Of a stretch of 36,026 nt of DNA, positions 73 to 27,728 are shown in pieces. The notes beneath the pieces are model-generated. The model was not told where the DNA came from. It searched no databases and worked only from the letters and a program-made list of their open reading frames with translations. How positions within the stretch are numbered: the first letter of the stretch is position 1; each line of letters begins with the position of its first letter. Source of the DNA: a virus. The stretch is from the IMG/VR virus record IMGVR_UViG_3300034375_009655, positions 1 through 36,026 of that record. One strand, given 5' to 3'. A program made the position numbers and the translations under genes.

Positions 73-147
73 CGGGAATGTGGTGCTAATAGAAACACGC
101 CTAGTTTGGGGCTAGGAGACGCGGTGCAAATCCGACATTCCCGACCA
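73..147 (+). tRNA. tRNA-Pro(TGG)
   Basis: Acceptor CGGGAAT pairs perfectly with ATTCCCG, followed by ACCA. Anticodon stem CCTAG/CTAGG closes loop TTTGGGG (anticodon TGG). C1-G72 is typical of proline tRNA. The D-loop has AG where GG is expected and the T-loop is TGCAAAT with G at position 55, so it belongs to the AG/GC elbow class. The outer T-stem pairs are weak. Confidence 0.85.
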
Positions 148-220
148 TTTTTATTGATATGTGACAGAAACGAATAATCAATACCGATTACGTATACATA
201 ATTACATATCATTTTTTCAT

Positions 221-298
221 TCCCAGTGGGCTGGCTTGGTGTTAAGCGACGGACTGTTAATCCGTTTAAGTGTGGATCGTAACCACAACTGGGAGCCA
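221..298 (+). tRNA. tRNA-Asn(GTT)
   Basis: Acceptor TCCCAGT/ACTGGGA plus GCCA. Stem CGGA/TCCG closes loop CTGTTAA (anticodon GTT). The D-loop keeps GG and the T-loop is ATCGTAA: U55 and C56 are kept while the 54/58 pair is swapped from T-A to A-T. A second tRNA-Asn(GTT) lies inside the giant RNA at 13770-13840. Confidence 0.9.
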
Positions 299-309
299 AT
301 TTTAATTAT

Positions 310-384
310 GGCCCGGTCATCTAATGGAAAGGATTCTTGGTTTTCAACCAAGCCATCGGAGTTCAATTCTCCGTCGGGCTACCA
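310..384 (+). tRNA. tRNA-Glu(TTC)
   Basis: Acceptor GGCCCGG/TCGGGCT (two G-U pairs) plus ACCA. Stem CTTGG/CCAAG closes loop TTTTCAA (anticodon TTC). D-loop has GG and T-loop TTCAATT is canonical. Confidence 0.92.
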
Positions 385-392
385 TTTTTCAT

Positions 393-481
393 GGATCTTG
401 TTCCTGCTGACTGTCTGTAAAACAGTTGTCAAAAAACGTGTAGGAAGTTGACTAAAGGAGCGTTACCTTCAAGATCCACCA
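393..481 (+). tRNA. tRNA-Tyr(GTA) with reduced D-arm
   Basis: Acceptor GGATCTT/AAGATCC is a perfect 7-bp helix plus ACCA. Stem ACTGT/ACAGT closes loop CTGTAAA (anticodon GTA). A long variable region follows, as expected for tyrosine. Only about 10 nt separate the acceptor from the anticodon stem, so a normal D-arm cannot form. The T-loop is the variant AGCGTTA. This is the one gene whose missing D-loop prevents assigning an elbow pair. Confidence 0.8.
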
Positions 482-487
482 TTTTAT

Positions 488-561
488 GCTTGGTTAATTT
501 AATAGCAAAATATCCGGCTGATAACCGGAAAACAGAGGAGCGTAACCTCTACCAAGCACCA
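488..561 (+). tRNA. tRNA-Ile(GAT)
   Basis: Acceptor GCTTGGT/ACCAAGC plus ACCA. Stem TCCGG/CCGGA closes loop CTGATAA (anticodon GAT). D-stem ATTT/AAAT closes D-loop AATAGCA, with AG in place of GG. T-stem ACAGAGG..CCTCT closes loop AGCGTAA. AG/GC elbow class with the 54/58 pair swapped. Confidence 0.9.
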
Positions 562-571
562 TTTTATTAAT

Positions 572-599
572 GCTACGGTGGCTGAGTCTGGTTTAAGGA
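572..599 (+). pseudogene. 5' fragment of a class II (Ser/Leu-type) tRNA
   Basis: The stretch reads like the start of a serine or leucine tRNA: a 7-nt acceptor strand GCTACGG, TG at 8-9, then GCTGAGT..GGTTTAAGG, close to the usual Ser D-arm. It then runs into AT-rich sequence ahead of the GIY-YIG gene. No downstream strand complementary to the acceptor (CCGTAGC) was found before the next tRNA. It looks like a remnant left when the endonuclease gene inserted. Confidence 0.55.
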
Positions 600-658
600 T
601 TTTTATTAAAAAGTTCAAATTGGTTCACTTATATTTGAACTATAACATATTTATATAC

Positions 659-1318
659 ATGAAACATTATGTATATAAAATAACGAATTTAGTAAATAAT
701 AAAATTTATATTGGTAAGCATTCAACTAATAATATTAATGATGGTTATATGGGGTCCGGTAAATTAATCAAACATGCTATTGAAAAATATGGAGTTGATA
801 AATTTAAAAAAGAAATCATGTTTGAATTTGAAACCGAAGAAGAAGCACTTCTAATGGAATCTGAAATAGTTGATTCTGTTTTTGTTTCTCGTCTTGACAC
901 ATATAACATAGCGGAAGGTGGACGTGGTAGTAATAGTCATATCGGAAAGGATTTGCTTAGCATTGGAGGTAAAAATGCATATTCATTAGGAAAATTAAAT
1001 GAGGGAAAATTGAAATTCATTGAATCATTAAAGTCTGATGCTGAACTGAGTAATGCATGGAAGAAAAAAATTTCAACAGGACTAAAACTTCAATGGGAGT
1101 TGAATGGTCACAATTGGATAGGAAAATCACATTCTGAAAAAACCAAATTGAAAATGAGTGAATCTCATAAAGGAAAACATGAGGGGGTTAAAAATTCTCA
1201 ATATGGAACTTGTTGGATTCATAATTTAGAATTGAAAGAATCCAAACGGATAAAAAAAGAAGAATTGTATGATTACATATCCGTTGGTTGGATAAAAGGT
1301 CGCAAAATGAAATTTTAA
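659..1318 (+). CDS. GIY-YIG homing endonuclease
   Basis: A 219-aa protein with the GIY-YIG nuclease signature at the N-terminus: VYKITNL, then KIYIGKH, and a Y-G motif in YMGSGKLIKHAI. These match the T4 Seg-type nuclease core. The C-terminal half is basic and carries a NUMOD-like DNA-binding stretch (GKSHSEKTKLKMSES). The start is placed at 659 because the conserved core begins there; an upstream in-frame ATG at 578 lies inside the tRNA remnant. A 9-bp inverted repeat (AGTTCAAAT/ATTTGAACT) precedes the gene. It sits between a broken tRNA and intact tRNA-Thr, as expected of a free-standing homing gene that targets tRNA loci. Confidence 0.85.
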   Translation: MKHYVYKITNLVNNKIYIGKHSTNNINDGYMGSGKLIKHAIEKYGVDKFKKEIMFEFETEEEALLMESEIVDSVFVSRLDTYNIAEGGRGSNSHIGKDLLSIGGKNAYSLGKLNEGKLKFIESLKSDAELSNAWKKKISTGLKLQWELNGHNWIGKSHSEKTKLKMSESHKGKHEGVKNSQYGTCWIHNLELKESKRIKKEELYDYISVGWIKGRKMKF

Positions 1319-1321
1319 AAT

Positions 1322-1396
1322 GCTGTCATAGTTTAATTGGCAAAACGACTGACTTGTAATCAGTTATTCCCAGATCGTGGCTGGGTGACAGCTCCA
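1322..1396 (+). tRNA. tRNA-Thr(TGT)
   Basis: Acceptor GCTGTCA/TGACAGC plus TCCA. Stem ACTGA/TCAGT closes loop CTTGTAA (anticodon TGT). D-stem GTTT/AAAC closes AATTGGCA, which has GG. T-stem CCCAG/CTGGG closes ATCGTGG, keeping U55 C56 but with the 54/58 swap. It begins 3 nt after the GIY-YIG stop codon. Confidence 0.9.
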
Positions 1397-1400
1397 TTTA

Positions 1401-1575
1401 GGTTATCGGAGTTCCTTGTCAATCCATGCTTATTGGGGTTAACTAAAACTGTGGTTATAATGTAGTACATCATAGACACGATTGAGTAAGGTGAGTAGCT
1501 TACTGCAGGTAGTTTACTCTTTATTATGATAAGCCAACTTACCACAGACATCAATAAGATTAAAGTCCGATAACC
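1401..1575 (+). ncRNA. Structured RNA unit A in the tRNA array
   Basis: A 175-nt unit flanked on both sides by tRNAs and followed by the same A/T spacer that follows tRNAs. It is closed by a 9-bp perfect helix (1401-1409 with 1567-1575). Nested inside are 1429-1435/1552-1558 (7 bp), 1449-1455/1541-1547 (7 bp) and 1484-1489/1514-1519 (6 bp). There is no anticodon arm, T-loop or CCA, so it is not a tRNA. I recognise no family. A folding comparison with relatives would be decisive. Confidence 0.45.
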
Positions 1576-1588
1576 ACAATTTATTTAC

Positions 1589-1665
1589 GGGAGTGTAGCT
1601 CAGATTAGTAGAGCGCTGGTGTGAAATACCAGAGGTCGTGATGGCGGAATTCACTGCTCCCACCA
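1589..1665 (+). tRNA. tRNA-Phe(GAA)
   Basis: Acceptor GGGAGTG/TGCTCCC plus ACCA. Stem CTGGT/ACCAG closes loop GTGAAAT (anticodon GAA). D-stem GCTC/GAGC closes AGATTAGTA (AG, not GG). The T-loop is GGCGGAA, with G55 and C56 and a G-G at 54/58. AG/GC elbow class. Confidence 0.88.
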
Positions 1666-1670
1666 TTTTA

Positions 1671-1810
1671 TTCCGGAAATAAGGTCACCCCGAGAACACG
1701 TGACCCGCTAAACTGTTCTCATAACTTTTCGGTTTAAGGTAATCCCCAAACCTAATCGGATATATTGCTCTGATTTTGCTCCTGATAAGAGTTAGTGAAA
1801 ACTGTCATAC
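1671..1810 (+). ncRNA. Structured RNA unit with H-type pseudoknot
   Basis: The 150-nt gap between tRNA-Phe and tRNA-Ala has no credible ORF. It contains a compact classical pseudoknot: GGTCAC 1683-1688 pairs with GTGACC 1700-1705, and GAGAAC 1692-1697 pairs with GTTCTC 1715-1720, with loops of 3, 2 and 9 nt. A further GGTTT/AAACC hairpin lies at about 1731-1756. This geometry resembles ligand-binding or frameshifting pseudoknots, but no known class is recognised. Outer boundaries are uncertain. Confidence 0.4.
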
Positions 1811-1818
1811 TTTTATTT

Positions 1819-1894
1819 GGGTTCACATGTTCCAAGGAGGCGACACTGCTTTGCAAGCAGAGTGTGGTCAGTTCGATTCTGACTGGATCCACCA
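1819..1894 (+). tRNA. tRNA-Ala(TGC)
   Basis: Acceptor GGGTTCA/TGGATCC (two G-U pairs) plus ACCA. Stem CTGC/GCAG closes loop TTTGCAA (anticodon TGC). T-stem GTCAG/CTGAC closes canonical TTCGATT. The D-loop region has GG, though the D-stem is poorly paired. Confidence 0.85.
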
Positions 1895-1902
1895 ATTTAT
1901 AT

Positions 1903-2075
1903 ATCTGTGTAGCCAACTGGTTAGAATTCTTAGTAACAAATCTTACAATACTAGTAATGGGGGTTGTAAAAAGTATTCAGGGATTTACATAATTAATACA
2001 TGTAACGGTTATGTAAATTGAAGGCGCTCGAGTGAGATCGAGAGAATGTAGGTTCAAATCCTGCCACAGGTGCCA
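1903..2075 (+). tRNA. tRNA gene with ~95-nt insertion in the D-loop, isotype unresolved
   Basis: Acceptor ATCTGTG (1903-1909) pairs over 7 bp with CACAGGT (2065-2071), followed by GCCA. T-stem GTAGG/CCTGC closes canonical TTCAAAT. The 5' D-strand GCC with AACTGGTTA matches a D-loop start. The 3' D-strand GGC appears only at about 2021, just before the arm CTCGA..TCGAG. About 95 nt of hairpin-rich sequence, including a 10-bp helix ATTTACATAA/TTATGTAAAT, separates them. The anticodon loop is 6 nt (GTGAGA), so the isotype is uncertain. It could be an intervening sequence or a fused structured RNA. Confidence 0.55.
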
Positions 2076-2085
2076 ATTTATATAT

Positions 2086-2161
2086 GGATAGTTAGTATAA
2101 TGTTTATTACATCGTGCTCTTAACACGAAAGATGAGAGTTAGAATCTCTTGCTATCCACCA
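2086..2161 (+). tRNA. tRNA-Lys(CTT)
   Basis: Acceptor GGATAGT/GCTATCC plus ACCA. Stem TCGTG/CACGA closes loop CTCTTAA (anticodon CTT). The D-loop has GT where GG is usual, and the T-loop is TTAGAAT with A56 instead of C56. The 19-56 pair is thus U-A instead of G-C (GU/UA elbow class). Confidence 0.88.
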
Positions 2162-2168
2162 ATTTCAC

Positions 2169-2322
2169 GATATGCTTACAGGGACCGAGAGTGCGATTAA
2201 TACGCCTCTATTACCCAAAGCTGCAACGAGTAGGTAATAGGAAGAAATACATGGAAACTCTAAGTTGCAGGAGATAACCATGAACTAGCAGACTGGATCT
2301 GGCCGGTTCCTGTAAGCATATC
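2169..2322 (+). ncRNA. Structured RNA unit B with 17-bp closing helix and pseudoknot
   Basis: A 154-nt unit between tRNA-Lys and the next tRNA-like gene. The ends pair over 17 bp (2169-2185 with 2306-2322, one G-U). Inside, TATTACC 2209-2215 pairs with GGTAATA 2233-2239, while CTGCAAC 2221-2227 pairs with GTTGCAG 2264-2270; the two helices interleave as a pseudoknot. GCG/CGC also closes a small hairpin near 2192-2206. It has no tRNA arms and no ORF. The family is unknown. Confidence 0.5.
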
Positions 2323-2335
2323 AAAATTTTATTAT

Positions 2336-2486
2336 GGGCAATGGATGGTCGGTATCATCATTGTTGGTTATCGAAACTCAAGTAAAGTGCTTGACTAACA
2401 TTTGAAAAGTTTTGATGATTAAGCAGCAATCAAATTAGTCACTTGATTGTGGGAATGAAAGGGGTTCGACTCCCGTATTGCTCTGA
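2336..2486 (+). tRNA. tRNA-like gene with ~75-nt insertion, isotype unresolved
   Basis: Acceptor GGGCAAT pairs perfectly with ATTGCTC (2477-2483). D-stem GATG/CATC closes GTCGGTAT, which has GG. T-arm AGGGG..CCCGT holds canonical TTCGACT. The 151-nt total is about twice a tRNA. Between D-arm and T-arm are extra helices: TGTTGGTT/GACTAACA, TCAAG/CTTGA, ATCATCA/TGATGAT and CAATCAA/TTGATTG. The 3' end reads TGA rather than CCA, and no clear anticodon loop with U33 is visible. Confidence 0.45.
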
Positions 2487-2493
2487 TTTTTAT

Positions 2494-2582
2494 GCAGGTG
2501 TAATCAAGTGGCCGACGATATCCGACTTTTAATCGGATGGAGTTTATCTCCCGCGTGGGTTCGAATCCCACTGCCTGCACCA
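2494..2582 (+). tRNA. Class II tRNA with TTT anticodon
   Basis: Acceptor GCAGGTG/TGCCTGC plus ACCA. Stem TCCGA/TCGGA closes loop CTTTTAA (anticodon TTT, lysine codons). T-stem GTGGG/CCCAC closes canonical TTCGAAT, and the D-loop has GG. A 17-nt variable arm with a GGAG/CTCC stem makes it class II, which is normal for Leu, Ser or Tyr but not Lys. The A73 discriminator and D-arm look leucine-like. Charging identity cannot be read from sequence alone. Confidence 0.8.
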
Positions 2583-2635
2583 ATTTATTATGATTGTATT
2601 TTAACTTTTAATCAAAAAGTTCAATATTTATATAT

Positions 2636-3406
2636 ATGAGTCATATTAAATTAAAGGAAATTCTATTGGAACGTAATTCTGACAAACGTAATGTTATGAA
2701 TGCAAATTATTTTATGTATATGGTTGAGAATTACAAGAAATATTTCAGAATTAAAGATGAAGAGTATGATTTTGATGACAAATCTGGATATGTGCTCTTT
2801 AGAACAAAGACTGGTTTAGATGTCGCTTCTGAATATAAATTGTATTCTAAATTTATTGGTAAATATAAAATTTTTAACGAAGAATCATATTCTGAATTTC
2901 TTAAAGGCATGGGATTTATAATTGAATATGATAGTTTCAATCAAGGTGATCGGGGTTGGTATGACCGCAATACCAAGGTTGTAGCGGTTAAAATAAAATT
3001 AACTCCAGAGGTTCGTTTAAAGTCAGAAGAAGATCAGTATGAGTTTTCTACTGATGTATTGGATAGATTAGTTAAAAAGGCTATTCTAGACGGTAAAAAT
3101 ACAATAGTTCATGAGTTTTCTCATTACATATCCGATCTTGAATCCAGCGGAAATGTTGGTAAAAGTTATAAAACTCCTAAAGACATTGAATATGATAGTG
3201 ATTTAGAGGAATTACAAGCTAGACTGATATCGGTGTTTGATGAAATTGAAGATAATTATGATATTGATCCTGATGGAGATCCAAAACGCTTTTTAGAATT
3301 TGTAATTGATGAATATGGTTCTGAGTTATATTACAATTCTGGTAATAAAGAATATAAAAAATCTTTAATAAAAAGAATATATCAATATTTCAATGAGTTG
3401 AAATAA
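2636..3406 (+). CDS. HExxH putative zinc metalloprotease, possibly virion-packaged
   Basis: A 256-aa protein with HEFSH at residues 159-163, the zinc-binding and catalytic motif of gluzincin-type metalloproteases. A helix beginning DLEELQARL about 30 residues later could supply the third ligand. The N-terminus IKLKEILLE resembles the capsid-targeting signature shared by several proteins in this window, with LxE as the possible cut site. It is a lone protein gene inside the tRNA array. The ATG sits right after an AT-rich TATATATATG stretch, and no Shine-Dalgarno sequence is visible. No exact family is recognised. Confidence 0.7.
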   Translation: MSHIKLKEILLERNSDKRNVMNANYFMYMVENYKKYFRIKDEEYDFDDKSGYVLFRTKTGLDVASEYKLYSKFIGKYKIFNEESYSEFLKGMGFIIEYDSFNQGDRGWYDRNTKVVAVKIKLTPEVRLKSEEDQYEFSTDVLDRLVKKAILDGKNTIVHEFSHYISDLESSGNVGKSYKTPKDIEYDSDLEELQARLISVFDEIEDNYDIDPDGDPKRFLEFVIDEYGSELYYNSGNKEYKKSLIKRIYQYFNELK

Positions 3407-3462
3407 ATATTCACCAACAATTTAACTTCACTCGTCGTTTATATTGGCGATACCAATTTTAT

Positions 3463-3552
3463 AGCAGAATGGTGTAATGGTAACATGTCAGGCTCATAAC
3501 CTGAAGAAACGGTAATACCGTGTTGGAGGTTCAAATCCTTCTTCTGCTCCCA
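3463..3552 (+). tRNA. tRNA with CAT anticodon and long variable arm (Met or Ile2)
   Basis: Acceptor AGCAGAA/TTCTGCT plus CCCA. Stem TCAGG/CCTGA closes loop CTCATAA (anticodon CAT). T-stem GGAGG/CCTTC closes canonical TTCAAAT, and D-loop AATGGTA has GG. A ~20-nt variable region forms an ACGGT/ACCGT hairpin, which is class II architecture on a CAT tRNA. Initiator hallmarks (unpaired 1-72, three G-C pairs in the anticodon stem) are absent. CAT could also be read as Ile2 if C34 is converted to lysidine. Confidence 0.8.
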
Positions 3553-3632
3553 ATTTATTTCCGATATGGGATTTGCCGATTTCATATTTGGAATAAACCC
3601 GACCGCTAATATTTTCACGGCAATGATTTGCG

Positions 3633-3707
3633 GGTTTTATAGTTTAGTGGACAAAACGCTGGTCGTGGAGATCGGAGACATAGGTTCAAATCCTATTAAC
3701 ATTTACG
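3633..3707 (+). tRNA. Degenerate tRNA-like gene
   Basis: D-stem GTTT/AAAC closes AGTGGACA (GG), and T-stem ATAGG/CCTAT closes canonical TTCAAAT. Stem CTGGT/ATCGG closes a 7-nt loop CGTGGAG, but position 33 is G instead of U. The acceptor GGTTTTA/TAACATT has one mismatch and the 3' end is TACG, not CCA. It may be a decayed tRNA (TGG or GTG could be read) or a tRNA mimic. The preceding 3575-3632 holds an AAACCCG..CGGGTTT pairing that competes with this acceptor. Confidence 0.45.
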
Positions 3708-3723
3708 GGATACTTTATTTTAC

Positions 3724-3801
3724 GGTCTGGAGGCCAAAGTAGGTCGAGGCACCCGCCTGTCACGTGGGAGAAAGCGAGTTCGAGTCTCGTCCAGATCGCC
3801 A
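3724..3801 (+). tRNA. tRNA-Asp(GTC)
   Basis: Acceptor GGTCTGG/CCAGATC plus GCCA. Stem CCCGC/GTGGG closes loop CTGTCAC (anticodon GTC). T-stem GCGAG/CTCGT closes canonical TTCGAGT. D-loop has GG. Confidence 0.9.
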
Positions 3802-3807
3802 TTTTAT

Positions 3808-3899
3808 GTTCGGTCTGACGAGTGTTGTACTTGTAACATTGGCTAGCTAAAAACGTGATTACGAGACGAATGTAGGTTAAACTCCTACGCCGGACGCCA
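3808..3899 (+). tRNA. tRNA-like gene with expanded anticodon arm, isotype unresolved
   Basis: Acceptor GTTCGGT/GCCGGAC pairs over 7 bp plus GCCA. T-stem GTAGG/CCTAC closes TTAAACT with A56. The D region reads AGTGTTG with GT, matching the GU/UA elbow class. The best anticodon stem is CTTGT/ACGAG, extendable to 7 bp with AA/TT, but it encloses about 26 nt instead of 7. That suggests ~19 extra nucleotides in the anticodon loop, and no anticodon can be assigned with confidence. Confidence 0.55.
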
Positions 3900-3907
3900 T
3901 TTTATAT

Positions 3908-3997
3908 GTATCGGTGACGGAACTGGCTAACGTAACAGGCTGCAACCCTGATGTCACTCTTTTGAGTGTAAGAGTTCAAATCTCTTCCGGTACTCCA
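3908..3997 (+). tRNA. tRNA-Cys(GCA) with long variable arm
   Basis: Acceptor GTATCGG/CCGGTAC plus TCCA. Stem CAGG/CCTG closes loop CTGCAAC (anticodon GCA). The variable region forms CACTC-TTTT-GAGTG, a true class II arm, unusual for cysteine. D-loop has GG and T-loop is canonical TTCAAAT. Confidence 0.85.
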
Positions 3998-4005
3998 TTT
4001 TTTTA

Positions 4006-4034
4006 TTGACAATTTTCAAAAATTCATATATAAT
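4006..4034 (+). promoter_or_regulatory. sigma70-type promoter
   Basis: TTGACA 4006-4011, 17-nt spacer, TATAAT 4029-4034: a full consensus match. The ATG at 4044 lies 9 nt after the -10 box, so the message would have almost no leader. Confidence 0.85.
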
Positions 4035-4043
4035 ATATTATAT

Positions 4044-4232
4044 ATGAAATCGTATATTATGATAATTTTACTTTCTTTAAATTTATTTTTTATAGATTTT
4101 TTCTATAAAAGTAAATACGATTATGATTTTGAATTACGTGGAATGCCGACATCCATTATAATAAATTGGGATGTTATGGAAATAGAAGGATTGATTCTAT
4201 ATGACTCAATTATGAATTTTAATATTTGTTAA
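4044..4232 (+). CDS. Small membrane protein, unknown function
   Basis: A 62-aa protein starting with a hydrophobic segment (residues 5-20, IMIILLSLNLFFIDFF) that could be a membrane anchor or signal sequence, followed by a short mixed tail. It has its own consensus promoter immediately upstream and sits alone among tRNA genes. No family is recognised. Confidence 0.55.
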   Translation: MKSYIMIILLSLNLFFIDFFYKSKYDYDFELRGMPTSIIINWDVMEIEGLILYDSIMNFNIC

Positions 4233-4245
4233 TTTCTGATCAGAA

Positions 4246-4280
4246 GGTAAGTTTGTGGGTCGCTCCCGTATCTTACCTAA
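4246..4280 (+). other. Hairpin after the small membrane gene
   Basis: AGGTAAG and CTTACCT pair over 7 bp around a ~20-nt loop, just downstream of the stop codon at 4232. No T-run follows, so it is not a typical intrinsic terminator. It may protect the mRNA 3' end or belong to the next tRNA-like unit. Confidence 0.35.
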
Positions 4281-4282
4281 CT

Positions 4283-4367
4283 AAGTTGTTAGTAGTAGTG
4301 TAGTAGGTGAGCACGCTTCGCGGTGAAAACGAGGAAGTCTGAGTTCAAGTCTCAGTGAAACCAGCTT
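4283..4367 (+). tRNA. tRNA-like gene, irregular
   Basis: A T-arm CTGAG/CTCAG with canonical loop TTCAAGT is clear, and GTAGTAGGTGAG resembles a D-loop with GG. AAGTTG (4283-4288) pairs with CAGCTT (4362-4367), but six extra nucleotides separate the T-arm from that helix. The anticodon region CACGCTTCGCGGTG forms only a short stem, possibly exposing TTCG. No CCA is encoded. It is either decayed or a tRNA mimic. Confidence 0.4.
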
Positions 4368-4382
4368 AAAGAATTTATTATG

Positions 4383-4460
4383 TTGTGCGAATCCGAAGTG
4401 GTCGAGGAACCAGATTGTGACTCTGGGAATTAGCGAGTTCGAGTCTCGTCGTACACCCCA
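4383..4460 (+). tRNA. tRNA-His(GTG)
   Basis: Stem CCAGA/TCTGG closes loop TTGTGAC (anticodon GTG). T-stem GCGAG/CTCGT closes TTCGAGT, and D-stem TCC/GGA closes a GG loop. The acceptor pairs TTGTGCG with CGTACAC except for T1-C72, followed by CCCA. A G at 4382 can serve as the histidine G-1 opposite C73. Confidence 0.85.
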
Positions 4461-4468
4461 TTTTAAAT

Positions 4469-4542
4469 GCGTCATTGGTGAAGTGTTATCACATTTGATT
4501 GCCAATCAAATATCGCTGGTTAGATTCCAACATGACGCACCA
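4469..4542 (+). tRNA. tRNA-Gly(GCC)
   Basis: Acceptor GCGTCAT/ATGACGC plus ACCA. Stem TTTGA/TCAAA closes loop TTGCCAA (anticodon GCC). D-stem GTGA/TCAC closes AGTGTTA (GT). The T-loop is TTAGATT with A56. GU/UA elbow class. Confidence 0.9.
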
Positions 4543-4551
4543 TTTTAACAT

Positions 4552-4626
4552 TCCGCTGTGGTTCTGGGAAACCGGGTGGGCTCCAAACTCACTGTCGAGA
4601 GGGTTCGATTCCTTCCAGCGGGGCCA
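4552..4626 (+). tRNA. tRNA-Trp(CCA)
   Basis: Acceptor TCCGCTG/CAGCGGG plus GCCA. Stem GTGGG/CTCAC closes loop CTCCAAA (anticodon CCA). D-stem GGTT/AACC closes CTGGGA, and T-loop TTCGATT is canonical. Confidence 0.9.
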
Positions 4627-4636
4627 TTTTATTTAT

Positions 4637-4710
4637 GGAGGTTTAGTGTAAAAGTAACACGTTGGGATTTGACCCCAAAGCCGGAGGAGCGTTACCTTCA
4701 ACCTCTGCCA
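4637..4710 (+). tRNA. tRNA-Gln(TTG)
   Basis: Acceptor GGAGGTT/AACCTCT plus GCCA. Stem TTGGG/CCCAA closes loop ATTTGAC (anticodon TTG). D-stem GTGT/ACAC closes AAAAGTA (AG). T-stem GGAGG/CCTTC closes AGCGTTA. AG/GC elbow class. Confidence 0.9.
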
Positions 4711-4714
4711 TTTT

Positions 4715-4789
4715 GGACTTGTAGTTTAGCGGTAAAACAGCGGACTCATAATCCGTCAGACATCGGTTTGAATCCGGTCAGGTCCACCA
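4715..4789 (+). tRNA. tRNA-Met(CAT) or Ile2
   Basis: Acceptor GGACTTG/CAGGTCC plus ACCA. Stem GCGGA/TCCGT closes loop CTCATAA (anticodon CAT). D-stem GTTT/AAAC closes AGCGGTA (GG). The T-loop TTTGAAT has T56, giving a G19-U56 wobble. Confidence 0.88.
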
Positions 4790-4798
4790 AATTTATAT

Positions 4799-4881
4799 GG
4801 GTGTGTGGTGGAATAGTATACACAGCTGTCTTAGAAACAGTGGCCTCGAGCATGCAGGTGCAACTCCTGTCACGCCTACCA
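4799..4881 (+). tRNA. tRNA-Leu(TAG)
   Basis: Acceptor GGGTGTG/CACGCCT plus ACCA. Stem GCTGT/ACAGT closes loop CTTAGAA (anticodon TAG). The variable region is long (class II), as expected. The D-loop has AG and T-loop TGCAACT has G55. AG/GC elbow class. Confidence 0.9.
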
Positions 4882-4890
4882 TTTTATTAT

Positions 4891-4966
4891 GGGCATATAG
4901 CTTAGTAGCTAAAGCAGCTGTTTTACACGCAGAAGATCGTAAGTGCGAGTCTTACTATGCCTACCA
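4891..4966 (+). tRNA. tRNA-Val(TAC)
   Basis: Acceptor GGGCATA/TATGCCT plus ACCA. Stem CTGT/GCAG closes loop TTTACAC (anticodon TAC). D-stem GCTT/AAGC closes AGTAGCTA (AG). T-stem GTAAG/CTTAC closes TGCGAGT (G55). AG/GC elbow class. Confidence 0.9.
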
Positions 4967-4971
4967 TTTCT

Positions 4972-5059
4972 AGAGAATAAAGAGTTAAGGTAACTTCACT
5001 GATTGGAAATCAGATGGTCGTTGAAAGGCGATTCGGATCGTGTCCGATGTTCTCTGCCA
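4972..5059 (+). tRNA. tRNA-Ser(GGA)
   Basis: Acceptor AGAGAAT/GTTCTCT plus GCCA. Stem CTGA/TCAG closes loop TTGGAAA (anticodon GGA). A long variable arm follows. D-loop has GG and the T-loop is ATCGTGT (54/58 swap, U55 C56 kept). Confidence 0.88.
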
Positions 5060-5183
5060 CGCCGGATTAGTATTTTAAACATTAATTCATTATAACGAAA
5101 AATAAAGAAATGCCAATGAAAAATTTCATTTAATTAAAATTTTAAATTTATTTATGTTTTTTGAGTGGAATCTAAAAGTATTA

Positions 5184-5199
5184 TATACTTATAAGTATA
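5184..5199. promoter_or_regulatory. 16-bp perfect palindrome before tnpB
   Basis: TATACTTATAAGTATA is a perfect 16-bp palindrome that ends one base before the tnpB ATG. It could be an operator or a hairpin occluding the start codon; it also contains -10-like AT sequence. Confidence 0.5.
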
Positions 5200-6291
5200 A
5201 TGATACGAAGTTCAAAACATATATTGAAATATCAAACTGAATTGAAATCTAATCAATTAAATGATTTATCGGTTGAATTTGAATTTTTGGTACAAAAATA
5301 TATTGATTTAATTTGGTCACGTAAGCTTGAACTTAAATTATTAATGTCATCAAAAGAATTACCATCTTCTAATAAAATAAAACATTCGCGTTGGAAACAA
5401 TTAGCATATAAAACTTCTAGTGAAATGGTTAGAAGTGTAATAAATAAAAAGACAAAGAATAAAACAAAACCAATTTATAAAAACATATCCATTAATATAG
5501 ATGAGCGATTTATTGATATAGAAGTTGGAAAATCAACTGAATTTGATGAATTTGTTAAATTGACACTTCCTTTTATGAAGGAAGGTGTTCGTAGAGCCAA
5601 CACTATAAAACTTCCTATACGACATCATAAACATTCAAATAAATTTAGATTAAGTAAAAAATGGAAACGTAAAAAAACAGTAAGATTGGAAAAACGGAAT
5701 GGTAATTTTTATATTTCATTTATGTGGGAGTGTGAAACTAAATCCACGTCAACCAATCAAAAAAAATCAATTGGATTTGATTGTGGTTATAAAAAATTAC
5801 TCGTTGATTCTTCTGGAAATGTATATGGAAAAGAACTTGAATTAATTTATAAAAAGATTTCAAATAAACAACAAAAGTCAAAAAACTTTAAAAAATCATT
5901 AACCGAAAGAAATAATAAAGTTAATGAGGTTATAAATTCAATTGATTTGTCAAACGTTGATGAAGTTATTGTTGAAAATTTAAAATTCGTAAAACATAAA
6001 ACTAAAGGAAAGATCCGAAAAAGTTTTAATAATAAATTACAAAGATGGATTTACGCTCAAGTTTTGAGAAAGTTGGAACAACGTTGTGAAGAAAATGGTA
6101 TTTTGTTTACAATGATAAATCCCGCTTATACATCTCAAACTTGTTCAAAGTGTGGTATCTCTGAATCTTCTTCCAGAGTAGGAGAGAAGTTTAAATGTAT
6201 CTCATGTGGATTTGAAATTGACGCAGATGAAAATGCTGCAATAAACATTCTACATAGAGGAGCCTATAGTCCCTCTACTTCAAAAACTTAA
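5200..6291 (+). CDS. tnpB: TnpB RNA-guided nuclease of IS200/IS605 family
   Basis: A 363-aa protein with a complete RuvC-like site: D194 in IGFDCG, E259 in VIVENL and D343 in DADENAA. A zinc ribbon with CSKC (315-318) and CISC (333-336) lies between the second and third acidic residues. The order and length fit TnpB, the compact ancestor of Cas12 that cuts DNA guided by a right-end RNA. The very basic middle (KKWKRKKT) suits nucleic-acid binding. All catalytic residues are present, so the protein looks active. No transposase partner is nearby. Confidence 0.92.
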   Translation: MIRSSKHILKYQTELKSNQLNDLSVEFEFLVQKYIDLIWSRKLELKLLMSSKELPSSNKIKHSRWKQLAYKTSSEMVRSVINKKTKNKTKPIYKNISINIDERFIDIEVGKSTEFDEFVKLTLPFMKEGVRRANTIKLPIRHHKHSNKFRLSKKWKRKKTVRLEKRNGNFYISFMWECETKSTSTNQKKSIGFDCGYKKLLVDSSGNVYGKELELIYKKISNKQQKSKNFKKSLTERNNKVNEVINSIDLSNVDEVIVENLKFVKHKTKGKIRKSFNNKLQRWIYAQVLRKLEQRCEENGILFTMINPAYTSQTCSKCGISESSSRVGEKFKCISCGFEIDADENAAINILHRGAYSPSTSKT

Positions 6292-6391
6292 TTTCATTGT
6301 TTTTCATTGAAATTGGTAACTATAATAGCAATACACTTCATTGGTAATGAAGCATCAGGGGAGCGTAACCCCTATCTGGCTCCACTTTTAT

Positions 6392-6467
6392 GTTCCCGTA
6401 GCTCAAAGTATAGAGCAAGTGGTTTCTACCCACTAGGTTACAGGTTAGAGTCCTGTCGGGAATGCCA
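6392..6467 (+). tRNA. tRNA-Arg(TCT)
   Basis: Acceptor GTTCCCG/CGGGAAT plus GCCA. Stem AGTGG/CCACT closes loop TTTCTAC (anticodon TCT). D-stem GCTC/GAGC closes AAAGTATA (GT). T-stem ACAGG/CCTGT closes TTAGAGT (A56). GU/UA elbow class. Confidence 0.9.
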
Positions 6468-6639
6468 TTTTGTCGTGCTATTTAACCAATAGCTAGTCGG
6501 AAACAACACCGATGATGAAACAACTGTGGTGGTTGTAAAAACTAATAACGTGATATCGTTCGGCTACGGTGGTCGTTAGGAAAACGCATGGAGAAAGGAT
6601 ACTTTCAATGAAGTGTGAGTTTTTGCCGGTGATTTATAT
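6468..6639 (+). ncRNA. Gap with structured-RNA potential (unit F)
   Basis: A 172-nt gap between two tRNAs with no credible ORF. It holds a GCTATT/AATAGC hairpin at about 6477-6493, a CAAC/GTTG hairpin near 6521-6535, and several alternative CACCG/CGGTG pairings spanning 6507-6631. No single fold is clearly best, and no CCA or T-loop is present. Spacing and setting resemble the other non-tRNA units in the array. Confidence 0.3.
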
Positions 6640-6712
6640 GGGAGCGGAACAAAGTTGTTGGCTGAGAATCATAATTTCATGCAGAAGGGAGCGTTACCCT
6701 TCGCTCCTTCCA
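6640..6712 (+). tRNA. tRNA with CAT anticodon (Met or Ile2)
   Basis: Acceptor GGGAGCG/CGCTCCT plus TCCA. Stem TGAGA/TTTCA closes loop ATCATAA (anticodon CAT). T-stem AAGGG/CCCTT closes AGCGTTA. The D-arm is compact (ACAA-AG-TTGT) and carries AG. AG/GC elbow class. This is the third CAT tRNA in the array. Confidence 0.8.
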
Positions 6713-6723
6713 TTTATAACAAT

Positions 6724-6925
6724 ATAAGGAAACTTATATTTCTCAGAACTTTTCGTGGTTCTGAGATTTACGTTAAACCCGAGCAATCGGCCCCATCGTC
6801 GGGAGACGGTGGAAATAAAAGACCTCGCACGCTTCAGTGTAACCTCCATCAGTGGGATTGCACAGCGAACCAGGTGACTTGAATTGACAAGTATCATTCT
6901 AACGACGGTTAGAAGATGAGGTTTA
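6724..6925 (+). ncRNA. Structured RNA unit G with GNRA tetraloops
   Basis: Two strong hairpins lead: ATAAG-GAAA-CTTAT (6724-6737) and a 9-bp helix 6741-6749/6758-6766. TAAACC (6774-6779) pairs with GGTTTA (6920-6925) and encloses a domain with an 8-bp helix 6793-6800/6805-6812 capped by GGGA, then ACTTG/CAAGT and CTAAC/GTTAG hairpins. GAAA and GGGA are GNRA tetraloops, typical of tertiary-folded RNA. No ORF or tRNA signature is seen. The family is unknown. Confidence 0.45.
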
Positions 6926-6946
6926 TTATTAATTTATTTTATAAAT

Positions 6947-7021
6947 GTGAGTAAGGTGTTGACAGATGCATGATGGGCTTCCACCCCATAGGATTCGGAG
7001 CGTTACCGAATACTCACACCA
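6947..7021 (+). tRNA. tRNA-Gly(TCC)
   Basis: Acceptor GTGAGTA/TACTCAC is perfect, plus ACCA. Stem ATGGG/CCCAT closes loop CTTCCAC (anticodon TCC). T-stem TTCGG/CCGAA closes AGCGTTA. The D region contains ACAGA (AG) but its stem is weak. AG/GC elbow class. Confidence 0.88.
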
Positions 7022-7022
7022 T

Positions 7023-7050
7023 TTAACAAAAATAACATATATACTATAAT
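7023..7050 (+). promoter_or_regulatory. Promoter for tRNA-like leader and acidic protein
   Basis: TTAACA 7023-7028, 16-nt spacer, TATAAT 7045-7050. The expected start falls at or next to the first base of the tRNA-like structure at 7057. Confidence 0.65.
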
Positions 7051-7056
7051 TATATA

Positions 7057-7129
7057 TGTTCTCTGGTGTAATGGTAGCACAAATTAATTTGATTGATTTG
7101 GTGTAGGTTCGACCCCTACGGGAACGAGG
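7057..7129 (+). tRNA. tRNA-like structure in the leader of the acidic protein gene
   Basis: Acceptor TGTTCTC/GGGAACG, D-stem GTG/CAC with a GG loop, and T-stem GTAGG/CCTAC around TTCGACC are all clear. The anticodon arm AAATT/GATTT encloses 9 nt (AATTTGATT) instead of 7, and the 3' end is AGGA rather than CCA. It lies between the promoter and the Shine-Dalgarno of the next gene, so it may be a tRNA mimic acting as leader RNA rather than a translating tRNA. Confidence 0.5.
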
Positions 7130-7138
7130 AATAAAAAA

Positions 7139-7144
7139 GGAGGG
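7139..7144 (+). promoter_or_regulatory. Strong ribosome binding site
   Basis: GGAGGG lies 4 nt before ATG 7149. This is the strongest Shine-Dalgarno seen in the window, where many genes have none. Confidence 0.8.
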
Positions 7145-7148
7145 AATT

Positions 7149-8669
7149 ATGAATGATGATAAAATAAATGAAGAATTTGATGAAATGACTGTATTGCAGA
7201 ATACTTCTGAAACTGATATGTCTGCTAAAGAATTTCAAGGAATAACTACTTCTGATAATATTGGTGAAGACGTTGATGAAGAAAGTTCTGATGTAATATC
7301 AAACACAATCGTTCATAATGAAGAATCTGAGGTTTCAATGAATAATTCTAATATAGAACCATTTGAAATTAAGAACGATGTGGATGATTCTTTTGAGTTG
7401 CCATCTGAAAATAATTTGTATGACTTGGATTTAAATGATATACACGTTGAACACGATAACAATGTTCATAATAATGATTCTTCTACTTTTAATGAAGTCG
7501 ATCAATTGGATATTGACTCAGATTCGATAAATGTTAATTTGGTTGATCAATTAGAAGCAATTTCAGCATTAAATAGCTCTTTTGAGAATAATGAAAGAGC
7601 GTTGCTTGATGTCGATGTTGTTGACTCTCGTGAAAAATCGGTTACAAACTCTGTTGTCACAGAAGATTCTGTAACCAGTATAAATGTATCAACTGAAGAA
7701 AATAATGATGCTCCGCCTATTCAAAAAGAAGAATCCGTTTCTATTGATGTAGTAACCGACAAACCAATAGAATCTACATATAATTCTGAAGATGAAGCCG
7801 ACACGATTTCTCAATCTGAAGATCAAATTAATTCCGTTGTTGAAAATATCGGCGGTGATGTTATTAAAGAAATCGTTGTTGATGATGAAATCGTTGATGA
7901 TGAAATCGTTGTTGATGAAATCATTGCTGATGATGAAATCGCTGTTGATGATGAAATCGCTGATGATGAAATCATTGCTGATGATGAAATCGCTGTTGAT
8001 GATGAAATCGCTGTTGATGATATATCAAATCAACCGACTGAAAATGACGATGAAATAAATGATATTGCAATCGATGACGAATCTACGATTTATAAATTTT
8101 CTGATACCACAAACCACGTCCTCAACTCAGGAAAAGGAAGCGGAAAACAACAACTCGTTTCAAATTTTGAAGAAGAAGTTGATACGGTTGATATTACAAT
8201 TCACAATTATAATCCTAGTAAGACGGATGGTAACGTTAAGTTATTGAAGGATGGTGATGTAATAAAAACAATTGACTTAGACGATGTTGTTTCTTCAAAG
8301 GGTGAAGAAACTTTTACTTTAAATTCCGACGAATCTTTTAATTCTATGGAAATTAATTATGAAGGAGGCCCAAATGCATTTCAAATCAGAGGAATTGATG
8401 CTACTGGGAAAATAGAAACATATTATGATGACGCTTCTTCGGAAGAAGAATTTTTCAACATGGAATCTTCCGAACAAGTTAATTCTACATCATGGGTTGA
8501 TGTCGTTGATGAAGAATCTGTGTATAATGATAACTTAGATACTGATTGGGTTAGTGGAACTGAATCAGATGACATTGACGAATCGCCTGATAGTTTGTTT
8601 GAACAATCTTCAGATAGTTCTGATGTAGAAGATTTTCATATTGACGATTTTAATATATTGGATGGTTAA
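7149..8669 (+). CDS. Long acidic repeat protein, unknown function
   Basis: A 506-aa protein that is extremely rich in Asp, Glu, Asn and Ser. Residues about 240-295 are a low-complexity array of DDEI(V/A/I) units. Residues about 345-430 look like a small folded beta domain (VDITIHNYNPS..GNVKLLKDGD), and the acidic tail resumes afterwards. There is no signal peptide or membrane segment. The strong RBS and dedicated promoter suggest high expression. The charge pattern fits a DNA mimic, a capsid-internal protein or a calcium-binding protein, but none can be chosen. Its stop codon lies inside tRNA-Ser(GCT). Confidence 0.75.
   Translation: MNDDKINEEFDEMTVLQNTSETDMSAKEFQGITTSDNIGEDVDEESSDVISNTIVHNEESEVSMNNSNIEPFEIKNDVDDSFELPSENNLYDLDLNDIHVEHDNNVHNNDSSTFNEVDQLDIDSDSINVNLVDQLEAISALNSSFENNERALLDVDVVDSREKSVTNSVVTEDSVTSINVSTEENNDAPPIQKEESVSIDVVTDKPIESTYNSEDEADTISQSEDQINSVVENIGGDVIKEIVVDDEIVDDEIVVDEIIADDEIAVDDEIADDEIIADDEIAVDDEIAVDDISNQPTENDDEINDIAIDDESTIYKFSDTTNHVLNSGKGSGKQQLVSNFEEEVDTVDITIHNYNPSKTDGNVKLLKDGDVIKTIDLDDVVSSKGEETFTLNSDESFNSMEINYEGGPNAFQIRGIDATGKIETYYDDASSEEEFFNMESSEQVNSTSWVDVVDEESVYNDNLDTDWVSGTESDDIDESPDSLFEQSSDSSDVEDFHIDDFNILDG
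7873..8022 (+). repeat. In-frame GATGATGAAATC repeat tract
   Basis: About ten copies of a 12-nt core GATGATGAAATC alternate with GTT, GCT or ATTGCT linkers, encoding the DDEI array of the acidic protein. Periods of 15 and 18 nt mix, so the tract could expand or contract in frame. Confidence 0.85.
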
Positions 8670-8747
8670 GCAGCTAGGAGCTGTCACTGTTTGCTAAACA
8701 GATGGAACGTGAAAACGTTTACGGATCGTGCCCGTAATCATCCGCCA
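8660..8747 (+). tRNA. tRNA-Ser(GCT), overlapping the end of a CDS
   Basis: Acceptor GGATGGT/ATCATCC plus GCCA. Stem CTGT/ACAG closes loop TTGCTAA (anticodon GCT). Long variable arm; D-loop has GG; T-stem TACGG/CCGTA closes ATCGTGC. The first 10 nt overlap the acidic protein gene, and its TAA stop covers tRNA positions 8-10. Confidence 0.9.
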
Positions 8748-8756
8748 TTTTTATCA

Positions 8757-8785
8757 TTGACAAACGTATATCAGTGTTATATAGT
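8757..8785 (+). promoter_or_regulatory. sigma70-type promoter
   Basis: TTGACA 8757-8762, 17-nt spacer, TATAGT 8780-8785. ATG 8792 lies 6 nt downstream, predicting a leaderless message. Confidence 0.8.
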
Positions 8786-8791
8786 TTAATT

Positions 8792-8884
8792 ATGAAACGA
8801 AGAAATATATCACTCACGCCAAATATAAATATAAATAAAATAATTTCAAAAAATAATCCAATTTCAGATGGATTGGTTAGATGA
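8792..8884 (+). CDS. Small 30-aa ORF
   Basis: Encodes a 30-aa Asn/Ile-rich basic peptide starting MKRRNISLTP. It has no recognisable domain. Support comes from the consensus promoter placed exactly for leaderless translation. It could also be a spacer transcript leading into tRNA-Arg(ACG) at 8905. Confidence 0.4.
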   Translation: MKRRNISLTPNININKIISKNNPISDGLVR

Positions 8885-8904
8885 AGAATTTGTAAATAAA
8901 TCAT

Positions 8905-8980
8905 GCTCCTTTAGTGTAATTGTAAAACACGATCCGCTACGGACGGATTAATATAGGTTAGAGTCCTATAGGGAGTGCCA
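8905..8980 (+). tRNA. tRNA-Arg(ACG)
   Basis: Acceptor GCTCCTT/AGGGAGT plus GCCA. Stem ATCCG/CGGAT closes loop CTACGGA (anticodon ACG, needing inosine at 34). D-stem GTG/CAC closes TAATTGTAAAA (GT). T-stem ATAGG/CCTAT closes TTAGAGT (A56). GU/UA elbow class. Confidence 0.9.
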
Positions 8981-9069: not shown

Positions 9070-9678
9070 ATGTATATGATCAATTTTTTGAAAATGAATA
9101 GTTTGATTAAATTTATTATCATATTTTTGTTTTTTCAAACAATTCTTTTTTCTATAGACATTTTCACATTTAAAGAATCTTTATCGGAAGGACAAACTCA
9201 TGCAAAATGGATTGTTGGCAAAGAAAATGAAAGGTCTAAATATAAAATACGTTATCACTGGTGGAATAAATTTACAGACCATTCTTTTTTAATCTCACCT
9301 CCAAGTATTAAAAGCGATATATTGATAATTGAAGATGTAATTGATAAAACAATAACATTCTTAGAAGTTACTATTAATAAATTAAATGACTCTTATTCTG
9401 AAATGGATAAGGTATTTTGGATGGCATTAATGTATAAGGTTGGTTATTCTAATTTCAAAGATAGATCCATTGATATTAATGATATTATTTACGCCAGTAA
9501 CATTGAAGTTGAATATATAAAACTGAAAGAATTTTATAATTTGCCAACCGAAATTCCATCTTTCCAATCTGAAAAAGTTAATGATGTTGTAAAACGCTCA
9601 AATTCAAATTCTTCTTCTTTCAAAAATAACAATCCCAATAATTTAAAAGAAGATGTGAATGAAGTTTCTCCTTTATAG
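9070..9678 (+). CDS. Putative exported or membrane-anchored protein
   Basis: A 202-aa protein with an N-terminal hydrophobic segment (residues about 12-32, LIKFIIIFLFFQTILFS) fitting a signal peptide or anchor. A mixed alpha-helical region and an Asn/Ser-rich tail follow. ATG 9076 is an alternative start. A TTGACA at 9028-9033 lies upstream without a convincing -10. The 3' end overlaps the PEP-CTERM gene by 20 nt, so the two are probably co-transcribed and may work together at the cell surface. No family is recognised. Confidence 0.6.
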   Translation: MYMINFLKMNSLIKFIIIFLFFQTILFSIDIFTFKESLSEGQTHAKWIVGKENERSKYKIRYHWWNKFTDHSFLISPPSIKSDILIIEDVIDKTITFLEVTINKLNDSYSEMDKVFWMALMYKVGYSNFKDRSIDINDIIYASNIEVEYIKLKEFYNLPTEIPSFQSEKVNDVVKRSNSNSSSFKNNNPNNLKEDVNEVSPL

Positions 9679-11326
9679 TTTTTTACTTTTGTCGTTAAAA
9701 ATCTTCGGATCAATATCGACTTGGGATGGGGACACTGACTCAGATTGGGGAAATTCAGCCAATTGGGATGTTGCTCCGACTAATGATACTTCCACAGATA
9801 CTGCATTTTTTCCTAGCTCAATTGGAACTGATGTTATAACGATAGGTTCTGATTATTCAATTGGTCAACTTACTATCACCGACGCTGGAGATGATAATGA
9901 TTTAACTTTTTCCAATTCATCCGGTGATAATACTATTATAATAGGTGATTATGCTCCCACTACGATTCCAGAAGGAATCGGAACTTCACTGAGTCATTTA
10001 TACATTAAAGATTATGGTGACAACATAACCTTTAATACTAAAGTTCACTTTGTCGGCAATGGCACTACGTCAGATCGACATTTAATAAGTACGTCTGATA
10101 GCACAAACGCAACTCTCACGTTTAATAATGAAGTGTATGTTGACTCCAGTATTATGTTGGAAACAGTATCAACCGATCGCTTTCTAAATATTGGAAACAC
10201 TGGAACTGTTGTAAATTTTAATGATAAAATTCGCATATCTCAAAGTGGAGTCCCTATTTTAATATATAATAATGGAACGATCAATTTCAATACAGCATCG
10301 ACTGACATTGTGGGATCACATCTTAGGCTCCGAGGAAAGGGCACTTATAATTTCAATGTGAGCAATGCATTAAGCACTATTGATCTTAGGCCAGAACATG
10401 ACGCTGGTGGCGGTAGCACTCGTATTTATAATACATCAGCAGGTCTAATCCAGACAAATCGAATATTTGCAGGTTGGTCATTAGATACATCGAAGAGTAA
10501 TACGATCGGAGGTTCTCACTTAACTGGAACCTCCGAATGGTCAGGAGATATAGATATTGGAAGCTTTAATAAAGATACATTCTTTTCAGTTGATTTTAAT
10601 TTTTCCGCTGCAGGTAGCTCTACTGTGCTTTTTTCAGGCGGAGGTACGCCTTATAATAAAGACATTTATACCAATGCATTTAACTCAACCTTGAATAAAA
10701 TTGGCACTGGAACTGTAGTGTTCTCAGGTGCTAAGGATTTTGATTTAGGCAATGGTGGGGAAACAGTCTTTAACGTTACCGATGGAACTCTAAATCTAAA
10801 ACACTCAGATGCAATTGGATCTTCTAATATAATTTTAAACATTGAAGGAGGTATATTAGAGACTGACGATTCGGCTGATGAGGTTCTCCAATTATCTACT
10901 TATAAAGGTATATTAAATGAAAATGGAACATACATATGGGATATTATTGACATGGACGGAACAACCGCAGGTGTCCATTGGGATGTGTTGTCATTTAGCA
11001 ATTTATTAGACATTCAAGCTTCTTCATCAAGTAAATTTAATTTGGAATTGAATCGAGTTAATCTTGGCTCCGACAATTGGGATAATACTTCAGAATATTC
11101 ATTTAAAATAATGGAATTTGGAAGTATCAATAATTTCAATGCAGCATATTTTAATCTTGATACTGTTGACTTTGGATCTTCACCTGACGGATATTCTTGG
11201 AGGATAATAGAAGAAGGTGGTGCTTTATATTTAAAATATGGATATACACCCGAACCGTCTACTTGGATTATGGTTAGTTTAATTGGGGTTATTATTATAT
11301 GTCGTTTAAAAAAACACAGATATTAG
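9659..11326 (+). CDS. PEP-CTERM surface protein with beta-strand-repeat passenger
   Basis: A 555-aa protein. Residues 1-18 form a signal peptide (KFLLYSFLLLSLKIFGS). TWDGDTDSDWGNSANW is the typical opening of autotransporter-associated beta-strand repeat proteins. The body is Ser/Thr/Gly/Asn-rich beta-type sequence. The C-terminus has all three PEP-CTERM sorting parts: the PEP motif in TPEPSTW, a hydrophobic helix (IMVSLIGVIIIC) and a basic tail (RLKKHRY). In bacteria this tail is processed by exosortase, which the host would have to supply. It is an unusual gene for a phage and was probably acquired from the host. Confidence 0.85.
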   Translation: MKFLLYSFLLLSLKIFGSISTWDGDTDSDWGNSANWDVAPTNDTSTDTAFFPSSIGTDVITIGSDYSIGQLTITDAGDDNDLTFSNSSGDNTIIIGDYAPTTIPEGIGTSLSHLYIKDYGDNITFNTKVHFVGNGTTSDRHLISTSDSTNATLTFNNEVYVDSSIMLETVSTDRFLNIGNTGTVVNFNDKIRISQSGVPILIYNNGTINFNTASTDIVGSHLRLRGKGTYNFNVSNALSTIDLRPEHDAGGGSTRIYNTSAGLIQTNRIFAGWSLDTSKSNTIGGSHLTGTSEWSGDIDIGSFNKDTFFSVDFNFSAAGSSTVLFSGGGTPYNKDIYTNAFNSTLNKIGTGTVVFSGAKDFDLGNGGETVFNVTDGTLNLKHSDAIGSSNIILNIEGGILETDDSADEVLQLSTYKGILNENGTYIWDIIDMDGTTAGVHWDVLSFSNLLDIQASSSSKFNLELNRVNLGSDNWDNTSEYSFKIMEFGSINNFNAAYFNLDTVDFGSSPDGYSWRIIEEGGALYLKYGYTPEPSTWIMVSLIGVIIICRLKKHRY

Positions 11327-27726: not shown

Positions 27727-27728
27727 TC

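What the first reader, a model, noticed from the sequence alone, without database searches (positions are those of the whole stretch)
5061..6384. TnpB element splits a tRNA-Thr(GGT) gene inside its D-loop
The two halves rejoin into a perfect tRNA: acceptor GCCGGAT/ATCTGGC, D-stem GTAT/ATAC, D-loop AATAGCA identical to tRNA-Ile. The insert carries TnpB with a complete active site and no TnpA. As TnpB guides are read from the sequence next to the right end, its guide should match the tRNA-Thr gene itself and attack intact alleles in co-infecting phages, acting like a homing system. If the element also contains a self-splicing intron (an IStron), the tRNA could still be made.
Basis: partly seen in the sequence, partly recalled or inferred. 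Interest (0 to 1): 0.85.

Follow-up and report, generated by a model that had tools for sequence, protein, structure and literature searches.

The report
TnpB element inside phage tRNA-Thr gene
A 1,250-base selfish element that carries only an RNA-guided DNA-cutting enzyme has landed inside a threonine tRNA gene of a phage, and its predicted built-in guide points at uninterrupted copies of that same gene, so it probably spreads much as homing endonucleases do.

Summary
5061-5073 and 6324-6380 rejoin into a cloverleaf tRNA-Thr(GGT), and no other place in the window offers the required 11 pairs. The insert is 5074-6323 (1,250 bp) and encodes one TnpB (363 aa) with the RuvC D-E-D residues and zinc ribbon. 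No transposase gene is present in the 36-kb fragment. A family search found 44 related loci in phage contigs. Five carry an IS607 serine-recombinase TnpA, so this is an IS607-derived, TnpA-less element (not IS200/IS605). Family comparison fixes the right end at ...GTAACTAT|. It reveals an omega-RNA scaffold with a covarying pseudoknot, and a target motif RGTRT on the left (here TTAGTAT in the 5' D-stem). The predicted guide is therefore AATAGCAATACACTTCATTG, i.e. the tRNA-Thr gene itself. The occupied right junction reads ACTAT, not RGTRT, so the element should spare itself. Homing into intact alleles is the best explanation, but it is inferred: no orthologous empty allele, cleavage or guide RNA was seen. 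The IStron idea is not supported (158 nt non-coding, no intron family match). This is a new member of a known kind with an unusual site and a well-defined, testable guide and target.

The parts
5061..5073 (+). 5' part of tRNA-Thr(GGT): acceptor GCCGGAT, TA, D-stem GTAT; its last bases TTAGTAT contain the predicted target (TAM-like) motif RGTRT
   Evidence: motif shared with L009, L013, L017, L018, L041
5074..6323 (+). Inserted IS607-derived TnpB-only element, 1,250 bp, 25% GC (window 33%)
   Evidence: right end fixed by family comparison; left end fixed by tRNA continuity; size and GC
5074..5199 (+). Left end, 126 nt non-coding, AT-rich, with imperfect inverted similarity to the right end
5200..6291 (+). 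TnpB RNA-guided nuclease, 363 aa; RuvC D194, E259, D343 and zinc-ribbon C315/C318/C333/C336 invariant in family
6255..6277 (+). omega-RNA stem-loop inside the tnpB 3' end (TAGAGG...CCTCTA); apical loop ATAGT at 6266-6270
   Evidence: covariation
6319..6323 (+). ACTAT: element right end, pseudoknot partner of ATAGT, last bases of the guide-RNA scaffold
6324..6343 (+). Predicted guide AATAGCAATACACTTCATTG (also D-loop to anticodon stem of tRNA-Thr); length of about 16-20 nt is assumed
   Evidence: guide position inferred from known TnpB biology
6324..6383 (+). 3' part of tRNA-Thr(GGT) from D-loop to CCA
4972..5059 (+). tRNA-Ser(GGA), upstream neighbour
6392..6467 (+). tRNA-Arg(TCT), downstream neighbour

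Best explanation
An IS607-type mobile element that has lost its serine-recombinase TnpA inserted after the motif TTAGTAT in the D-stem of a phage tRNA-Thr(GGT) gene. Its mRNA end folds into an omega-RNA whose last scaffold bases are ACTAT, and the guide is the adjoining tRNA sequence AATAGCAATACACTTCATTG. TnpB with this RNA should cut intact alleles (RGTRT followed by the guide match) in co-infecting or sister phage genomes. Repair from the occupied copy would then spread the element (homing or gene drive). The occupied copy is spared because its right junction reads ACTAT and its left flank is separated from the target sequence. Moves to new sites need TnpA in trans, from related elements that still carry it. 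Shown here: insertion, ends, family, conserved RNA structure, target motif. Inferred: RNA expression, cutting, homing, trans-mobilisation.
For: tRNA rejoining. 44 related TnpB loci in viral contigs. IS607 TnpA confirmed above cut-off upstream of tnpB in L017, L023, L027 and L041, also read in L025. Copies in one phage or in related phages share sequence up to GTAACT[A/G]T and then diverge. Stem-loop plus pseudoknot: 97% of cells paired, 7 pairs with two-sided changes, covariation score 0.456 against 0.195 shuffled, 0/500. Independent insertions restore interrupted genes and show the same left motif: L009 AGTAT (160-aa ORF restored), L018 GGTGT (169-aa HNH ORF restored), L017 GGTGT (87-aa ORF), L041 GGTAT. 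Active-site residues invariant. The only guide match in the window is the tRNA 3' half, whose flank ACTAT fails RGTRT. TnpB copies 94-96% identical lie in phages that share little else (mostly 72-85%), so the family is recently mobile. Contig G012 carries both an autonomous (L017) and a TnpA-less (L013) copy. Published precedents: TnpB as gene drive in plasmids (PMC11870625); IS607 reRNA with required pseudoknot (PMC10711439).
Against: No phage with the orthologous intact tRNA-Thr allele was found, so neither the empty site nor homing is directly seen. The closest intact tRNA-Thr targets have the motif AGTAT but 3 mismatches to the guide. Several family members have no recognisable right end and may be decayed or domesticated. 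The target motif comes from sequence, not a TAM assay; the interrupted-gene cases are few, and L016 has ATTAT instead.
Confidence: 0.72

Rival explanations
1. A plain transposition passenger: the IS607-derived element landed in the tRNA by chance through TnpA in trans, and TnpB now only prevents its loss or does nothing selective in this phage.
For: Most family members sit in unrelated genes or between genes, not tRNAs. IS607 TnpA relatives exist in the family. Insertion in a tRNA was seen once in about 40 loci.
Against: Active site and guide-RNA structure are conserved across the family although TnpA is usually absent, so TnpB and its RNA are under selection by themselves.
Confidence: 0.2
2. 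IStron: a self-splicing intron within the element lets the tRNA be made.
For: Group B IStrons are IS607-type and occur in phages (PMC4227781).
Against: Only 126 + 32 nt are non-coding. No group I or II intron in Rfam even at E <= 5. The shortest IStron that I saw in the part of the survey table read is 1,378 nt, longer than this 1,250-nt element. The right end ACTAT is explained by the guide-RNA pseudoknot.
Confidence: 0.02
3. Domesticated TnpB used by the phage as an exclusion weapon against relatives carrying intact tRNA-Thr, with no gain of the element itself.
For: Intact tRNA-Thr arms with the motif AGTAT are common in other viral contigs.
Against: Even the closest intact genes found differ from the guide by 3 positions, so only near relatives would be cut. 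Those also carry homologous flanks for repair, which makes homing the likely outcome.
Confidence: 0.06

Closest known systems
IS607-family elements (serine-recombinase TnpA + TnpB), e.g. ISXfa1
   Same: TnpB relatives here carry IS607 TnpA (NF033518). The right end encodes an RNA with a stem-loop whose loop pairs with the five bases flanking the guide, as described for ISXfa1/ISDra2 (PMC10711439). A dinucleotide is shared between left flank and right end.
   Different: TnpA is absent in the window copy. The shared dinucleotide is AT or GT (RGTRT ... CTRT) instead of the published GG, and the matched base covaries with the pseudoknot loop.
TnpB-only IS elements of phages (e.g. the IS200/IS605-type ISCaje elements in Campylobacter phages CP220 and CPt10, PMC2853527)
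   Same: TnpB without TnpA, in virulent-type phage genomes, at different places in related phages.
   Different: Different transposase lineage (IS607 here). This insertion is inside a tRNA gene.
T4 SegB and other free-standing homing endonucleases at phage tRNA regions
   Same: A nuclease gene within a phage tRNA cluster that would bias inheritance of that region. SegB is cited here from the paper title in the reference list of PMC2853527; that paper itself is not held.
   Different: RNA-guided and reprogrammed by its insertion site. It interrupts the tRNA gene that it targets instead of lying beside it.
TnpB gene drive in plasmids (PMC11870625)
   Same: TnpB reads its guide from its own insertion site and removes empty copies.
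   Different: Shown for plasmids, not phage genomes.

Membership tests
TnpB RNA-guided nuclease | RuvC-like D-E-D triad and zinc ribbon | tested here: met
   D194, E259, D343 and four Cys invariant in an alignment of 10 members; NF040570 113.3 bits, cut-off 100
TnpB RNA-guided nuclease | omega/re-RNA scaffold at the right end with pseudoknot to the guide-flanking bases | tested here: met
   covarying stem-loop and pseudoknot over 24 sequences
TnpB RNA-guided nuclease | RNA-guided cleavage next to a TAM | not testable with these tools
   motif RGTRT inferred only from insertion sites
IS607 family | serine-recombinase TnpA | tested here: not met
   absent from the window record; present in relatives L017, L023, L027, L041. 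Hence 'IS607-derived', not an autonomous IS607 element
IS607 family | matching dinucleotide at both junctions, no longer target duplication | tested here: met
   TAT at both junctions (5071-5073, 6321-6323); AT or GT matched in L009, L013, L017, L018, L041; the published dinucleotide is GG, so the letters differ
IS200/IS605 family | Y1 tyrosine TnpA | tested here: not met
   no PF01797 in the record; every TnpA read next to relatives is IS607-type
IStron | group I intron within the element | tested here: not met
   no Rfam intron at E <= 5 in 4960-6480; 158 nt non-coding
Homing element (works like) | spreads into intact cognate alleles by cutting and repair | not testable with these tools
   no orthologous intact allele found; no mixed-infection data

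The most novel reading that the evidence does not exclude
A phage-borne lineage of IS607-derived, transposase-less TnpB elements works as RNA-guided homing elements. The target dinucleotide (AT or GT), the right-end base and the pseudoknot loop base co-evolve, and the constant C of the right end (CTRT against target GTRT) distinguishes self from empty site. In this phage the lineage uses a tRNA gene as its homing site.
Probability: 0.4. Interest if true: 0.7.

Novelty: new member of a known kind. Interest (0 to 1): 0.5.

Why it matters
It gives a concrete, testable case of TnpB without its transposase acting as a homing nuclease in phages, with predicted guide, target motif and self-protection rule. 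The wider family offers a natural set of compensatory changes linking transposition core, guide-RNA fold and target motif.

Tried and rejected
Single-protein searches of viral contigs with TnpB, two core phage proteins and an exact tRNA-Thr segment gave no close relative of this phage; 11 tRNA-matching contigs also lacked a homologue of a window protein, so the orthologous empty allele is missing. A search for the same right end directly before a tRNA D-arm in other viral contigs gave 4 hits, none with a TnpB or an ARAGORN tRNA. Scanning family loci for other split tRNAs found none; the L023 hits are its intact tRNA-Pro being clipped. ARAGORN cannot see tRNAs with this D-loop, so split tRNAs of that type could be missed. 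Searches for empty sites of the relatives in related phages found only TnpB copies. Database homologues of the restored L018 HNH protein mostly stop near the junction (reaching residue 145-156, junction at 152), and the restored L009 protein has no hits, so these restorations rest on open frames only. IStron rejected.

Full report
What is there. The window is a 36,026-base virus record, probably a fragment, with a dense tRNA array from about 74 to 8980 and a tmRNA at 12030. Between tRNA-Ser(GGA) and tRNA-Arg(TCT) lies a 1,250-bp, 25% GC insert (5074-6323) holding one gene, tnpB (5200-6291). The flanks rejoin as GCCGGAT-TA-GTAT | AATAGCA-ATAC-A-..., a tRNA-Thr with anticodon GGT that folds as a full cloverleaf. 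Only one position of the window, 5061, fits all 11 acceptor and D-stem pairs of the 3' half. The D-loop AATAGCA and T-loop AGCGTAA are the same as in the tRNA-Ile at 488-558. In other viral contigs 70 tRNA-Thr(GGT) genes show the uninterrupted arm AGTATAAT[A/G]GCA; the best matches the joined gene at 55 of 73 positions.

What family. The protein passes the NCBIfam model for RNA-guided TnpB (113.3 bits, cut-off 100). An alignment search found 44 related loci in viral contigs. Relatives L017, L023, L027 and L041 carry an IS607 serine-recombinase TnpA above cut-off upstream of tnpB. L025 has one by reading, and L012 a truncated one. Most others have tnpB alone. The window has neither an IS607 nor a Y1 TnpA. 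The element is therefore IS607-derived and TnpA-less, not IS200/IS605.

Ends and guide RNA. Copies in the same phage or in related phages are alike up to ...GTAACT[A/G]T (or GCTGACTGT in the G021/G022 group) and then diverge, which places the right end of the window element at 6323. A stem-loop inside the end of tnpB (TAGAGG/CCTCTA) and a pseudoknot between its loop (ATAGT) and the element's last five bases (ACTAT) are supported by two-sided changes in 24 sequences: 97% of cells pair, with 7 pairs changed on both sides, and no shuffle in 500 reaches the covariation score. In L017 and L018 both sides have changed together (ACAGT/ACTGT), the loop change being a silent TAT-to-TAC. This is the layout published for IS607 reRNAs, in which the five bases flanking the guide pair with the loop of stem-loop 1 (PMC10711439). 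The guide is thus predicted to begin at 6324: AATAGCAATACACTTCATTG, the tRNA-Thr sequence itself.

Target motif. Where an interrupted gene can be rejoined, the bases before the insertion are AGTAT (window, L009), GGTGT (L017, L018) or GGTAT (L041); L013, mapped by alignment to its relatives, gives AGTAT. The consensus is RGTRT, and the A/G before the last T matches the A/G of the right end in each of these. L016 (ATTAT) departs from it. For further loci the junction was picked by the motif, so they are not independent. A matching dinucleotide at both junctions is the IS607 rule; the published dinucleotide is GG, here it is AT or GT. In the window the only match to motif plus guide is the right junction, which reads ACTAT instead of RGTAT, so an occupied allele should be spared.

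How it most likely works. TnpB and its RNA would cut intact tRNA-Thr alleles of sister phages, and repair from the occupied copy would spread the element, as with homing endonucleases; TnpB has been shown to act as a gene drive in plasmids (PMC11870625). The phage already carries other homing-type nucleases, including a GIY-YIG gene in the same tRNA array. Copies 94-96% identical in phages that otherwise share only scattered stretches at 72-85%, and the joint presence of autonomous and TnpA-less copies in contig G012, suggest recent mobility and possible help in trans. Expression, cutting and homing are not shown.

What does not hold. There is no sign of an IStron, so the tRNA is probably lost. 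No sister phage with the intact allele was found, although the tools may hide very near records. Insertion in a tRNA is the exception in this family: none of the other loci scanned rejoins into an ARAGORN-detectable tRNA, and the preference, if any, is for the motif rather than for tRNAs.

Noticed in passing
window 488-558, 4637-4707, 6639-6711, 6948-7022 and tRNA-Thr: Several tRNAs have odd T-loops (AGCGTAA, AGCGTTA, ATCGTAA, TTAGAGT instead of TTCRANY) and D-loops without GG (AATAGCA). D-loop A18 often goes with T-loop G55 and G18 with T55 (L048 is an exception), hinting at an altered tRNA elbow. ARAGORN misses some of these; the two ranges from 6639 on are read by eye only.
   Followed up: partly
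window 656-1318: GIY-YIG/NUMOD3 homing-type endonuclease gene between tRNA-Ile and tRNA-Thr(TGT) in the same tRNA array.
   Followed up: no
window 16414-17250, 19446-20099, 27699-27998, 34050-34373: Further HNH or endonuclease-like genes: the phage is rich in candidate homing nucleases.
   Followed up: no
L018 2735-4210: A relative of the TnpB element apparently sits inside an HNH endonuclease gene; joining the flanks restores a 169-aa frame.
   Followed up: partly
L010, L011, L012, L014, L029 and G021:72524-73699 (contigs G021, G022): Six TnpB copies, 82-84% identical in protein to the L011 copy, on two contigs of one metagenome; the five aligned share the same right end with different flanks, i.e. 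different predicted guides.
   Followed up: partly
L013, L016, L018, about 150 nt upstream of tnpB: Small open frame that looks like a ribbon-helix-helix protein in the place of TnpA, ending at the tnpB start.
   Followed up: no
L039 (contig G024): tnpB reads through two TAG codons; the phage may recode TAG.
   Followed up: no
window 9659-11326: 555-aa autotransporter-like protein that ends in a PEP-CTERM-like motif (PEPSTW...), unusual for a phage; no Pfam hit.
   Followed up: no
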